Below are positions 28,493 to 32,129 of a stretch of DNA of 64,000 bases, piece after piece. The stretch's first letter is position 1; each line of letters opens with the position of its first letter. Source of the stretch: Comamonas odontotermitis (GTDB lineage: Bacteria > Pseudomonadota > Gammaproteobacteria > Burkholderiales > Burkholderiaceae_C); contig NZ_CP083452.1 of NCBI RefSeq assembly GCF_020080045.1, positions 129,001 through 193,000 on the forward strand, given 5' to 3'. The notes under the pieces were generated by a model. That model was not told the DNA's origin and ran no database searches. It was given only the letters and a program-made list of their open reading frames with translations. The position numbers were made by a program, and so were the translations under genes.

Positions 28493-29302
28493 ATGACCAA
28501 GCCCCAGATTCCCGCCGGACTGAACGACGACCAATTGGCCGAGATCGACCAGATGCTCGACGACATGCGCGAGCGCGCCGAAGAGATTCCGCAGTGGGAA
28601 TTTGTCGATGGCGTGCTGACGGCGCTGGTCTGCACCCGCCGCGCCGTGCCCGAAGAAGAGTTTTTGCCCATGCTGGTGGGCGATGGCGAAATGCTGGAGC
28701 GCAGCGCCGACGGCAGCCTGCCCGTGCTGCCCGCCTTTGCCGACCGCGCCCAGCAGGACCGTTTTCTGGCGCTGTGGAACATTCGCTGGGCCGAAGTGGT
28801 GGCCCAGCTCGATACCGATGTGAAGAGCCTGGAAGAGGACGACACCTTCCAGCCCGATGCCATGGACATGCGCGGCGCCGTTGCCAGCCTGCCCGAGGAA
28901 GAGCGCAAGGAGATGGAAGGCCAGGACATTCCGTCGTTCGGCCAGGTCTGGGCGCTGGGCTTCATGTTTGTGGTGGAAAACTGGGCCGAGGAATGGGCCG
29001 CGCCACGCGACAAGGACGCCGCGCGCTGGCTCAACGATGCGCTCGACTCCGTGGTGGCACTGACCGAGGATGACACCGGCACCCCCACCGTCTGCATGTA
29101 CGACGAAAACGGCCCCGCCAGCACCAGCCAGGAGCGGGTGGAAACCTTTGGCGAAGCCATCTGGGCGGTGTACGACCTGCGCCAGATCTGGAAAAGCATG
29201 GGCCCGCGCCAGGCCACCGTCATCAAAGGCGATGTGCCCGGCCGCAACGACCCCTGCAGCTGCGGCAGCGGAAAGAAGTATAAAAAGTGCTGTGGCGCTT
29301 GA
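28493..29302 (+). CDS. UPF0149/YecA-like protein with C-terminal SEC-C zinc motif
   Basis: 269 residues. The N-terminal three quarters are acidic and alpha-helical ([28 protein letters not shown], the UPF0149 'EFVDG' signature). The C-terminus is the SEC-C metal-binding motif [16 protein letters not shown], with the usual Cys-x-Cys...Cys-Cys (or His) zinc ligands, as at the end of SecA. Proteins of this group may act near SecA or the ribosome, but the role here is not known. GGAGAGAA precedes the ATG. It ends in a bidirectional terminator. Confidence 0.88.
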
Positions 29303-29330
29303 TAGGTAAGCGCTTGGTGCTATGAAAAAA

Positions 29331-29359
29331 GAGGCATTGCGCACGCAATGCCTCTTTTT
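29331..29359. terminator. Bidirectional intrinsic terminator
   Basis: GAGGCATTGCG and CGCAATGCCTC pair almost loop to loop, flanked by AAAAAA on the left and TTTTT on the right, so both converging transcripts (SEC-C gene and RidA-like gene) end in a U-run. Just before it is a fragment of repeat family A (GGTAAGCGCTTGGTGCTATG). Confidence 0.9.
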
Positions 29360-29401: not shown

Positions 29402-29968
29402 CTACTTGGGCATGCGCACTGCGGTCACCTCGATCTCCACATACCAGGCCGGGTTGGCCAGTGCGGCAATCTGGAAGGCGGAGCGCGAGGGCAGGTTGGG
29501 CTGCTCGGCCGTGCCAAAGAACTGGGTGTAGCCCTGCATGAAGCCGGCAAAGTCCATCTTGTTGCCCTTGGCCGGGTCGGCCACCAGGAAGACCTGCATC
29601 TTCACTACATCCTTCATGGTCAGGCCCATGGCCTTGAGCTGCTTGTCGATGGTGGTCAGCACGCCAATGGTCTGGGCGCGTGTGTCGCCGCCATAGGCGG
29701 CAGGGTCATTGGCAGGCTTGGAGGCATCCACCACCGGCGGCACCTGGCCGGAGAGGTACACCGTTGTTGCGCCAGGCGGTATTTCCACGGCATTCGAGAT
29801 GGGGAAGTTGGAGCCCGGAATGCCGTGGCGCACCACGGACTGCGAGCGGCCGTCGCCCATTGAAGAGCTAGCGCAGCCCGCCAGGGTGCTGATGGCGGCC
29901 GCGGCGGCTGCCAGGGTCATCCAGGTGCGCAAGGCGGTGCGGGAAGAGGTGCGATGGGAAGGGGGCAT
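29402..29968 (-). CDS. RidA-family lipoprotein (exported imine/enamine deaminase)
   Basis: 188 residues. The signal peptide ends in a lipobox (STLAGC, Cys32), so a lipid-anchored periplasmic protein is expected, unlike ordinary cytoplasmic RidA of about 130 residues. The RidA/YjgF fold follows, with YLSGQVPPV, QTIGVLTTIDKQLKAMGLTMKDVVK and PSRSAFQIAAL. The catalytic arginine (Arg162) and the glutamate of VEIEV (Glu180) are kept, so hydrolysis of reactive imines or enamines is likely. It is the third gene of a tight minus-strand operon with cytochrome c (42-base gap) and flavin amine oxidase. It may hydrolyse the oxidase's imine product in the periplasm (inference). Confidence 0.88.
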   Translation of the reverse strand: MPPSHRTSSRTALRTWMTLAAAAAAISTLAGCASSSMGDGRSQSVVRHGIPGSNFPISNAVEIPPGATTVYLSGQVPPVVDASKPANDPAAYGGDTRAQTIGVLTTIDKQLKAMGLTMKDVVKMQVFLVADPAKGNKMDFAGFMQGYTQFFGTAEQPNLPSRSAFQIAALANPAWYVEIEVTAVRMPK

Positions 29969-30010
29969 GGGTAGGGGTCTCCTTGGGTTGGGATGGTTGC
30001 AACAGGGGGA

Positions 30011-30487
30011 TCAACCCCATGAATCCTTGAAGGATGCGGCGTCCGGACGCATCGGCTTCACATCTTCGGGCTTGACGGCGTCCTTGTAGTCATTGCCAAA
30101 ATGGGTGCGTACGTAGTTGACCACATCGGCAATCTGCTCGTCGGTCAGCCGGTTGGCAAACGATGGCATACCATGCAGGCCGCGCGATACGACGATCACC
30201 GGATAAGCGCCTGCGGCGAGCTTGGGGTTCTTGGCCAGCGCAGGGTAGAAGCCCGCGCCCTGCGCACCCTGGCCGTTGACCATATGGCAGCCCTGGCACA
30301 GCGATTGGTAGATCTTCTCGCCGCCCTGCTGCGAAAACGTGATCTTGTTGTCGGAGAAGCCACCAAACGGGCCGGTGGGAGACGATTGCGCCTTCACTTC
30401 CTCGGCTGTGGGAGCGTGGTTGCTTTGGGCGTAGGCGAGGCCACAGGCTGCAGCGCCTGCGGCAAGAAGGAATGTAAGGGTTTTCAT
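30011..30487 (-). CDS. Periplasmic class I cytochrome c
   Basis: 158 residues. Signal peptide MKTLTFLLAAGAAACGLAYAQ; one heme-attachment site CQGCH (64-68); the likely axial methionine is Met107 in GLHGMPSFANRLTDEQIADVVNYVR, a typical class I cytochrome end. GAGGA precedes the ATG. It lies 43 bases after the flavin amine oxidase gene and 42 before the RidA-like gene. In nicotine oxidoreductase NicA2 and relatives an adjacent cytochrome c is the electron acceptor; the same role is the natural inference here. Confidence 0.93.
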   Translation of the reverse strand: MKTLTFLLAAGAAACGLAYAQSNHAPTAEEVKAQSSPTGPFGGFSDNKITFSQQGGEKIYQSLCQGCHMVNGQGAQGAGFYPALAKNPKLAAGAYPVIVVSRGLHGMPSFANRLTDEQIADVVNYVRTHFGNDYKDAVKPEDVKPMRPDAASFKDSWG

Positions 30488-30530
30488 GGTGAAATCCTCG
30501 TGGGTGTCATCGGTGCTGGGTCGGGGCAGA

Positions 30531-32129
30531 TCAGGCGGTGGCCTGGGCTTTGTCATGCAGGCGCTTGACGGCGTCGAGCGAAGAGAGAATCGCACCCTCT
30601 TGCCAGGCCGGGATGTACGAGCAGTGCTCGCCCGCCAGCACGATGCGGCCATCGATCTCGCACAGATTCTTGTAGTGCTGCTCGCGCAGGGCATCGGTCC
30701 ACAGGCCAAAGCAACCGTTGATCCAGGGCACGCGGTGCCAGCCCACGGAAAAACCGCTCAGGAACTCCTTGGGGTACTGCGCATGCAGTTTGGCGCCTTG
30801 CTCCACCGCTGCCTGTATGCGCTGGGCCGGCGACATGGCGGTGTAAGCATAGGCATGGGCGTTTTCGTACTGGTAGCCCCCCAGCAGCACGGCAGGCCCC
30901 TTGCTGAAGAAGTTGGTCGAGGGGTAGGAGATCTGGCCAATGGGCAGATCGGTGTAGCTGATGCCGCCGTAGATGCGCTCGTCTTCTTCCCAGAAGCGGC
31001 GCTTGAACTCCAGCCCCACCTTGAACGAGGCGCCATAGGGCAGCGACTGGATGGCCTGCTTCATCGCATCGCCCACCTGGATATCGATCTGCGCCAGGAT
31101 GGACGCTGGAATCGTGCACACGCACCAATCGGCCTTGACCTGCTGCGCGGCACCTCCCTTTTTTGTGTCGCTGAAGGTCACGGTCACGCCTTTGTCGTTC
31201 TGCTCGATGCGGGTGACCTTGCAGTTGTGGCGCACGAGGCTGCCCACCTCCTTCTCGAAACCCTTGGCAATGGCATCCATGCCGCCCACCGGCTCGAAGA
31301 TCGCCGTCTGGAACTCCATCAGATGGCCGTCGTTGATCTTATTCCACAGGCCCGATTGGAGCAGGCTGCTCATCTCGATGGGCGTCGAATACTGCGCTAC
31401 CGGCATCAGCCCGCCGGCGGGCTCGATCTGGAAGCCCCGGTGGTTGCTCACTGAATGGCTTGCCACGTAGCGGAAATCCTTGTCGAGCGCGCCCCAGCCG
31501 CGCAGGCTCTCAAGCAGCTTTTCCTTGTCTTCCTTGGTCACGCCCTGGTCCAGCGCGCCCTGGTTGGTGGCCTTGGCCAGCAACTCGGCCACATAACCGT
31601 AGGCATCGGCCTGCACCTCGCGGAACTTCTGCGGCTTGCCGCCAAAGGCCTTGCTGTTGTGCACCAGAGCGTTGTAGTTCACCTGCATGAAGGGTTCGAG
31701 CTTGACACCGAATTTCTTGCAGTAATCCAGCACGGCATAGTGGTGGTAGGGCACGCGCCAGGGGCCGGGGTTGATGTAGTTGCCCTTGGCAAAGCTGCAG
31801 GTCTGTTTGGCGCCGCCCAGTTCGGTAAAGCTGTCGCCGCCGCGAACCGTCCAGCAGCGGCCGCCCGATCGCTCCTGAAACTCCAGCACCTGCACCCGGT
31901 AGCCTGCAGCACGCAGCTCATAGGCGGCCGTCATACCTGCCAGGCCTGCGCCAAGGATGACCACCGACCCGCCACGCTTGGCCTTGGACAGCTCCAGCGG
32001 GCCGCGGTAATTGGATTCCTGCGCGTAGCCCAGCGACGACATGGCCTGGTACATGACACTGCCGCCAGCAGCCTTTCCAATCATGGACAGCCAGTGGCGG
32101 CGACTCAAAGTGGGGATCGATGTAGACAT
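30531..32129 (-). CDS. Tat-exported flavin monoamine oxidase family dehydrogenase
   Basis: 532 residues. A twin-arginine signal (SRRHWLSMIG, Arg10-Arg11) precedes the FAD-binding motif VVILGAGLAGMTAAYEL (Gly60, Gly62, Gly65) and the ERSGGRCWTVRGG motif of monoamine oxidases. The C-terminal flavin contact is GRIVLAGEHCSYIPAWQEGAI, with WTDAL before it. An AAGGAGAG ribosome-binding site fixes the ATG; open codons upstream are non-conserved. It oxidises an amine to an imine. With a cytochrome c and a RidA-like lipoprotein directly downstream, it is probably a dehydrogenase passing electrons to the respiratory chain rather than to oxygen. The substrate is unknown. Confidence 0.92.
   Translation of the reverse strand: MSTSIPTLSRRHWLSMIGKAAGGSVMYQAMSSLGYAQESNYRGPLELSKAKRGGSVVILGAGLAGMTAAYELRAAGYRVQVLEFQERSGGRCWTVRGGDSFTELGGAKQTCSFAKGNYINPGPWRVPYHHYAVLDYCKKFGVKLEPFMQVNYNALVHNSKAFGGKPQKFREVQADAYGYVAELLAKATNQGALDQGVTKEDKEKLLESLRGWGALDKDFRYVASHSVSNHRGFQIEPAGGLMPVAQYSTPIEMSSLLQSGLWNKINDGHLMEFQTAIFEPVGGMDAIAKGFEKEVGSLVRHNCKVTRIEQNDKGVTVTFSDTKKGGAAQQVKADWCVCTIPASILAQIDIQVGDAMKQAIQSLPYGASFKVGLEFKRRFWEEDERIYGGISYTDLPIGQISYPSTNFFSKGPAVLLGGYQYENAHAYAYTAMSPAQRIQAAVEQGAKLHAQYPKEFLSGFSVGWHRVPWINGCFGLWTDALREQHYKNLCEIDGRIVLAGEHCSYIPAWQEGAILSSLDAVKRLHDKAQATA

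What the first reader, a model, noticed from the sequence alone, without database searches (positions are those of the whole stretch)
29402..32129. Three-gene exported amine-oxidation cassette: Tat flavin oxidase, cytochrome c and a RidA-type lipoprotein
Seen: a tight same-strand run (gaps 43 and 42 bases) of a twin-arginine-exported flavin amine oxidase, a single-heme periplasmic cytochrome c, and a RidA-fold protein with a lipobox that keeps the catalytic arginine. Known: flavin amine oxidases yield imines; RidA hydrolyses reactive imines or enamines; NicA2-type enzymes pass electrons to a cytochrome c. Inference: a self-contained periplasmic amine dehydrogenase whose product is hydrolysed on the spot by a membrane-tethered RidA, sparing the cytoplasm from reactive intermediates. 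RidA outside the cytoplasm is unusual.
Basis: partly seen in the sequence, partly recalled or inferred. Interest (0 to 1): 0.72.

Follow-up and report, generated by a model that had tools for sequence, protein, structure and literature searches.

The report
Exported amino-acid oxidase, cytochrome, imine-hydrolase operon
Three neighbouring bacterial genes encode an exported enzyme that probably strips electrons from amino acids outside the cell's main compartment, a cytochrome to take those electrons, and a helper that breaks down the reactive by-product; the same three-gene set was described in another bacterium in 2016, so this is a further example rather than a new system.

Summary
Two corrections. 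The flavoenzyme belongs with L-amino-acid oxidases, not NicA2-type amine oxidases. And the set is in print as lao-cccA-ridA in Gluconacetobacter diazotrophicus, where lao insertions abolish detectable auxin made from tryptophan (PMC5053998); a periplasmic LAAO/RidA pair is also proposed in Chlamydomonas (PMC10805672). Of 80 related loci the cytochrome gene follows the oxidase in 79 and a Rid gene in 49. A signal-like N-terminus is flagged in 48 of those 49 Rids by a crude script that flags 34 of 400 control blocks; the catalytic arginine is kept in 49 of 49. Lipidation is a local variant found in two groups; most cassette Rids look soluble and periplasmic. Likely mechanism: a periplasmic L-amino-acid dehydrogenase feeding cytochrome c, with an exported Rid3 protein hydrolysing the imino acid. 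Preference for cytochrome over oxygen and Rid activity are not shown. New member of a known kind.

The parts
30531..32129 (-). Exported flavin L-amino-acid oxidase/dehydrogenase-like protein (lao), 532 aa
   Evidence: PF01593 4.3e-58; best solved-structure match 2jae L-amino acid oxidase 3e-92
32088..32105 (-). Twin-arginine motif SRRHWL (residues 9-14)
   Evidence: sequence; second Arg in at least 90% of 25 homologues
31755..31757 (-). Arg125 of the oxidase, aligned with an Arg of LAAO that I recall as substrate-carboxylate ligand
   Evidence: invariant in 25 sequences; aligned with Arg at position 83 of the 2jae chain
30873..30875 (-). Tyr419 of the oxidase, aligned with a Tyr of LAAO that I recall as carboxylate ligand
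   Evidence: invariant in 25 sequences; aligned with Tyr at position 369 of the 2jae chain, next to a one-residue gap
30011..30487 (-). Single-heme c-type cytochrome (cccA-like), 158 aa, Sec-like signal MKTLTFLLAAGAAACGLAYAQ
   Evidence: PF13442 4e-12, PF00034 4.8e-12; best solved match is a fructose dehydrogenase cytochrome subunit, 2.8e-9
30284..30298 (-). Heme-binding motif CQGCH (residues 64-68)
   Evidence: sequence
29402..29968 (-). Exported Rid3-type imine-hydrolase-like protein, 188 aa
   Evidence: PF01042 64.6 bits; best solved matches PSPTO3006 1e-32 and PFL1385 6.2e-26, both assigned to Rid3 in PMC5619798
29873..29884 (-). Lipobox LAGC (residues 29-32); Ala at +2
   Evidence: sequence; lipobox by eye in 18 of 19 Comamonas cassette copies, this one included
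29483..29485 (-). Catalytic Arg162 of the Rid protein
   Evidence: Arg in 49 of 49 cassette Rids
29325..29359 (.). Hairpin with flanking A and T runs between the convergent genes, likely bidirectional terminator
   Evidence: read from sequence; not listed by the scan, possibly because the A/T runs pair into the stem

Best explanation
The operon encodes a periplasmic respiratory L-amino-acid dehydrogenase of the LAAO family. The Tat-exported FAD enzyme oxidises an L-amino acid to the imino acid and hands electrons to the Sec-exported single-heme cytochrome c made by the next gene, which would pass them to the respiratory chain. The third protein, an exported Rid3-subfamily imine hydrolase (here a lipoprotein, in most relatives apparently a soluble periplasmic protein), speeds hydrolysis of the imino acid to the 2-oxo acid and ammonia. 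Shown from sequence: gene content, order, export signals by motif, active-site residues, conserved linkage. Inferred: the reaction, the electron route, and the Rid's role.
For: Oxidase: best match to LAAO, with the LAAO Arg and Tyr kept. Cytochrome directly downstream in 79 of 80 related loci, from alpha-, beta- and gammaproteobacteria and Campylobacteraceae by their titles, although Rid follows in only 49 of 80, so the cytochrome is the tighter partner. In two Psychrobacter loci (L084, L090) and one Aeromonadales bin (L097) a gene with three CXXCH motifs sits directly upstream of the oxidase. Rid: signal-like N-terminus in 48 of 49 cassette Rids on an ATG-only count, against 34 of 400 control blocks inside oxidase frames and 1 of 6 other Rid genes of this genome; Arg and both Glu in 49 of 49. 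An M20 peptidase/deacylase follows the cassette in 13 of 57 downstream neighbours scanned, 9 of them signal-like by eye, which fits amino-acid substrates. Published: lao insertions leave no detectable IAA from Trp in G. diazotrophicus, and cytochrome-c-maturation mutants are cited as making 5% of it (PMC5053998). Rid3 proteins hydrolyse amino-acid-oxidase imines in vitro (PMC5619798).
Against: No biochemical evidence for these proteins. The lysine that I recall as promoting oxygen reactivity in this superfamily is kept (Lys370, invariant in 25), so oxygen use is not excluded. Chlamydomonas LAO1 makes hydrogen peroxide (PMC10805672). Two distant relatives (L018, L019) have the exported Rid but no cytochrome in the stretch held, a third (L020) has neither, and one Comamonas copy (L138) has the Rid without the cytochrome. 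Rid presence needs at least 15 changes on the oxidase tree, so it is dispensable. Of 30 genomes lacking the Rid gene at this locus, 14 have no match elsewhere and 1 only a weak one.
Confidence: 0.62

Rival explanations
1. A true oxygen-using L-amino-acid oxidase in the periplasm that makes hydrogen peroxide; the cytochrome serves another role, such as peroxide handling or ordinary respiration, and Rid hydrolyses the imine.
For: Closest solved relatives are named oxidases; the superfamily lysine is kept; the algal periplasmic LAAO makes peroxide (PMC10805672).
Against: Cytochrome gene kept in 79 of 80 loci, joined by a three-motif cytochrome gene in L084, L090 and L097; cytochrome-c-maturation mutants lose most of the product in G. 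diazotrophicus (cited in PMC5053998).
Confidence: 0.22
2. The Rid protein is a non-catalytic subunit or stabiliser of the oxidase, like the M-beta subunit cited for the algal enzyme, rather than a free imine hydrolase.
For: PMC5053998 cites an algal periplasmic LAAO complex with a RidA non-catalytic subunit.
Against: Catalytic Arg and both Glu kept in 49 of 49; Rid comes and goes while the oxidase stays.
Confidence: 0.08
3. An amine (not amino-acid) dehydrogenase of NicA2 type.
For: PF01593 covers both; a cytochrome neighbour resembles the NicA2 electron route, which I recall.
Against: Best match is LAAO at 3e-92 with the carboxylate-type residues kept; entries named monoamine or putrescine oxidase score far lower, 4e-12 at best.
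Confidence: 0.05

Closest known systems
lao-cccA-ridA operon of Gluconacetobacter diazotrophicus PAL5 (GDI2456-2455-2454; PMC5053998)
   Same: Same three families; cluster of lao with cccA and ridA; Tat-signal LAAO relative of R. opacus LAAO; joint fall in expression by RT-qPCR; organisation reported as conserved in Caulobacter crescentus and Xanthomonas
   Different: Its main text mentions signal peptides twice, once in the methods and once for the LAAO, and lipoproteins never, so export of the Rid is not stated; here the Rid has a lipobox. The GDI proteins themselves were not compared here
Chlamydomonas periplasmic LAO1 with LAO2/RIDA (PMC10805672)
   Same: Extracytoplasmic LAAO paired with a Rid protein acting on L-amino acids
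   Different: Eukaryote; no cytochrome c partner of the algal enzyme in the passages read; makes hydrogen peroxide
Rid3 subfamily proteins PSPTO_3006 and PFL_1385 (PMC5619798; PDB 9bka and 9bkc)
   Same: Closest solved Rid sequences; catalytic Arg kept
   Different: The solved PSPTO3006 chain has only 10 residues before the matched part, so no export region; PFL1385 has 27, nature not examined. The paper's text has no 'periplasm' or 'signal'
Rhodococcus opacus LAAO (PDB 2jae)
   Same: Sequence family; the aligned Arg and Tyr
   Different: Named as an oxidase; its gene neighbourhood was not examined
NicA2-type flavin amine dehydrogenases using cytochrome c (recalled)
   Same: Proposed electron transfer to cytochrome c
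   Different: Different substrate class; not the closest sequence family

Membership tests
L-amino-acid oxidase family (PF01593, R. opacus type) | Sequence match over the FAD and substrate domains | tested here: met
   2jae 3e-92 over residues 48-528
L-amino-acid oxidase family (PF01593, R. opacus type) | Carboxylate-binding Arg and Tyr | tested here: met
   Arg125 and Tyr419 aligned with 2jae Arg and Tyr, invariant in 25 homologues; their role in LAAO is recalled
L-amino-acid oxidase family (PF01593, R. opacus type) | Oxidation of L-amino acids | not testable with these tools
   needs an assay
Rid3 subfamily | Catalytic arginine kept (PMC4433059) | tested here: met
   Arg162; Arg in 49 of 49 cassette Rids
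Rid3 subfamily | RidA tyrosine replaced by isoleucine (PMC4433059) | tested here: met
   Ile57 in the window, position taken from the FPIS motif by eye; Ile in 47 of 49, Val in 1 (L039), gap in 1 (L100)
Rid3 subfamily | Imine hydrolysis | not testable with these tools
   shown for other Rid3 proteins only (PMC5619798)
lao-cccA-ridA cassette | Oxidase, cytochrome c and Rid genes adjacent on one strand | tested here: met
   also 49 of 80 related loci
lao-cccA-ridA cassette | Tat signal on the oxidase | tested here: met
   SRRHWL; by motif reading, no SignalP
lao-cccA-ridA cassette | Direct homology to GDI2456-2454 | not tested
   those sequences were not fetched
NicA2-type amine dehydrogenase | Closest sequence relationship to NicA2 | tested here: not met
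   top rows are L-amino acid oxidases (one is labelled only 'Amine oxidase'); 60 of 105 matches were shown; that NicA2 is in the PDB is recalled, and it was not compared directly

The most novel reading that the evidence does not exclude
A widespread proteobacterial respiratory module in which an extracytoplasmic L-amino-acid dehydrogenase of the LAAO family uses its own c-type cytochrome instead of oxygen, and carries a dedicated exported branch of Rid3 imine hydrolases, so that imine damage control is a periplasmic function as well as a cytoplasmic one. In Bradyrhizobium and kin it is extended by an exported M20 hydrolase that frees the amino acids, and in some Psychrobacter by a three-heme cytochrome.
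Probability: 0.45. Interest if true: 0.55.

Novelty: new member of a known kind. Interest (0 to 1): 0.38.

Why it matters
Rid proteins are usually explained as guards of cytoplasmic PLP enzymes against reactive imines. A group of Rid proteins that is consistently exported beside a periplasmic amino-acid oxidase needs another explanation, such as faster ammonia and keto-acid release or protection of envelope targets. It also gives a clean genetic system to test what Rid does where no PLP enzyme is expected. The operon class is already tied to bacterial auxin production from tryptophan, so its electron route and the Rid's location matter for plant-associated bacteria.

Tried and rejected
NicA2-type amine oxidase: rejected on sequence. 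Oxidase-cytochrome gene fusion: a 685-residue frame in L066 looked like a fusion but is another reading frame that runs into the cytochrome gene; rejected. Lipid anchoring as the general rule: rejected, most cassette Rids lack a lipobox. Two loci flagged as lipobox by the script (L057, L066) were taken as ordinary signals and one that it missed (L036) as a lipobox, by eye, before the tree count. L081 was flagged only on a wrong start, and is the one of 49 not flagged in the ATG-only recount, although MKRLVLIPFFFAILVAPAFS is seen on its ATG start. L100's Rid is split between two frames; it is counted among the 49 and only described. L022 is cut by the contig end 768 bases after the oxidase; it counts as no Rid in the 49 of 80 and was left out of the tree count. 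The signal script is crude: it flags 34 of 400 control blocks and one doubtful start among the 6 other Rid genes of this genome. Promoter scan: 0 found, 0.7 expected. Structure prediction was not run, because sequence already placed the families. Paper searches bearing on exported Rid proteins or the cassette: (L-arginine oxidase, RidA) 0 papers, 2 papers, both opened, 4 papers, of which PMC5053998 and PMC10805672 were opened; (Rid3, RidA, signal peptide) 0, 154 papers hold two of three terms, 20 listed, only PMC9537276 opened (its RidA acts in a cytoplasmic pathway, passages), 2 papers, 1 paper, listing only, 2 cable-bacteria papers, one opened, where the phrase is 'periplasmic ridges'. The library holds only open-licence PMC papers, so absence there is weak.
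Full report
OBSERVATION. On the minus strand: oxidase 32129-30531, cytochrome 30487-30011, Rid 29968-29402, with gaps of 43 and 42 bases. Pfam places them in PF01593, PF13442/PF00034 and PF01042. The oxidase begins with a Tat-like motif (SRRHWL), the cytochrome has a Sec-like signal and a single CQGCH, and the Rid has a lipobox LAGC with Ala after the Cys; by the +2 rule known from E. coli (recalled) this would send it to the outer membrane. A hairpin flanked by A and T runs separates the Rid gene from the convergent gene ending at 29302 (read by eye).

WHAT THE PROTEINS ARE. The oxidase's best solved relative is R. opacus L-amino acid oxidase (2jae, 3e-92; the species is recalled and also named in PMC5053998). 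Arg125 and Tyr419 align with an Arg and a Tyr that I recall as its carboxylate ligands, and both are invariant in 25 homologues. The Rid's closest solved relatives are PSPTO3006 (1e-32) and PFL1385 (6.2e-26), which PMC5619798 assigns to subfamily Rid3 and shows to hydrolyse imines made by an amino-acid oxidase, and iminoarginine (passages). The Rid3 hallmark given in PMC4433059 (passages), Ile for the RidA Tyr with the Arg kept, is met (Ile57, Arg162). The cytochrome's best solved matches are cytochrome subunits of sugar and alcohol dehydrogenases, weak but suggestive.

CONSERVATION. A cytochrome gene follows the oxidase in 79 of 80 and a Rid gene follows in 49 of 80 (earlier table). The one without a cytochrome is L099. 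By reading the titles, the triplet is in at least 14 named genera, plus unnamed bins including Campylobacteraceae. The sample is redundant, with many Bradyrhizobium. In the window's genus 17 of 53 genomes, the own included, have the oxidase, in 19 copies; 18 of 19 have the cytochrome and 18 of 19 Rids have a lipobox, while the exception for both (L138) has a Rid with a Sec-like signal. In an even draw from the class, 6 of 369 genomes, the own included, have the oxidase at 1e-60, so this is an accessory trait. The more distant relatives among those six differ: L017 has the triplet, L018 and L019 have the Rid without a cytochrome in the stretch held, and L020 has neither.

EXPORT OF THE RID. A script that looks for a basic start, a hydrophobic stretch and a cleavage motif behind any start codon flagged 49 of 49 cassette Rids in L021-L100, one of them (L081) on a wrong start. 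With ATG starts only it flags 48 of 49. The script is crude: it flags 34 of 400 blocks of the same length inside oxidase reading frames, and 1 of the 6 other Rid genes of this genome (L006, from an upstream ATG that is probably not the start). Four other weakly matching Rid genes in the loci were not flagged (second gene of L027, L033, L116, L122). Lipoboxes occur, by eye, in 9 of the 49 plus the window: three in Comamonadaceae (the window included) and seven in Alteromonadaceae or unnamed kin. On a quick oxidase tree of 85 rows, in which 30 of 82 inner branches have support under 80, lipobox presence takes at least 2 changes and Rid presence at least 15. So export is the rule, lipidation is a variant in two separate groups, and the Rid itself comes and goes.

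WHERE THE RID IS MISSING. Thirty genomes whose locus lacks the Rid directly downstream were searched: 15 have a strong Rid3-like gene (E at or below 1e-27), of which 14 have a signal-like N-terminus and 1 (L113) has not; 1 has only a weak match and 14 none at 1e-5. Some of these genomes are incomplete bins. Some of the other copies are themselves cassettes: L101 and L102 are oxidase-cytochrome-Rid, while L114 and L115 are Rid-cytochrome-oxidase; L103, L107, L109 and L112 have an oxidase relative without a cytochrome in the stretch held. L112 is the gene about 3 kb upstream of the L072 oxidase. A permuted order of the same three genes speaks for a functional link.

EXTENSIONS. Of 57 downstream neighbours scanned, 13 match M20 peptidase/deacylase families. 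Which 13 is inferred: 9 in Bradyrhizobium, Tardiphaga and kin have signal-like N-termini and 4 in Mesorhizobium and Aminobacter do not (by eye). In two Psychrobacter loci (L084, L090) and an Aeromonadales bin (L097) a gene with three CXXCH motifs lies directly upstream of the oxidase; the L084 protein ends in a membrane-like segment. Among 57 upstream neighbours, 3 match cytochrome c families. These fit amino-acid substrates and a respiratory electron route.

LITERATURE. PMC5053998 (abstract, passages and the first part of the Results) describes lao-cccA-ridA in G. diazotrophicus: Tat-signal LAAO, the three genes adjacent, reduced expression of all three in a lao insertion mutant, no detectable IAA in the mutants, and an organisation reported as conserved in Caulobacter and Xanthomonas. 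It cites cytochrome-c-maturation mutants with 5% IAA, proposes electron transfer and imine hydrolysis, and recalls an algal periplasmic LAAO with a RidA subunit. PMC10805672 (passages) shows LAO1-dependent IAA in Chlamydomonas and draws LAO2/RIDA in the periplasm. PMC4433059 reports clustering of RidA, and sometimes Rid3, with FAD amine oxidases. PMC7688666 (passages) proposes a Rid6 protein in a nicotine pathway, not exported in the passages seen. So the core idea is in print. I found no statement that the bacterial Rid proteins of this cassette are themselves exported (open-licence papers only, few opened).

VERDICT. Observation confirmed; interpretation right in outline, corrected on substrate class, tethering and novelty. 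Most likely a periplasmic cytochrome-linked L-amino-acid dehydrogenase with an exported Rid3 imine hydrolase; the electron acceptor and the Rid's benefit remain to be measured.

Noticed in passing
L084 3293-4777; L090 and L097 directly upstream of the oxidase: A cytochrome gene with three CXXCH motifs sits directly before the oxidase in two Psychrobacter loci and an Aeromonadales bin, where no Rid gene follows the cytochrome; L084's single-heme cytochrome has a lipobox-like LTGC.
   Followed up: partly
L047, L048, L051, L057, L066, L075, L080, L088, L094 downstream of the cassette: A gene for an M20-type peptidase/deacylase with a signal-like N-terminus follows the cassette in Bradyrhizobium and Tardiphaga loci.
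   Followed up: partly
L114, L115 (genomes of L082 and L086): Another cassette with permuted order Rid-cytochrome-oxidase.
   Followed up: partly
   Followed up: no
L099 (Bradyrhizobium tropiciagri): The only one of 80 loci without the cytochrome; a transporter-like gene follows the oxidase.
   Followed up: no
   Followed up: no
window 29325-29359: Strong hairpin with A and T runs between convergent genes that the terminator scan did not list.
   Followed up: no
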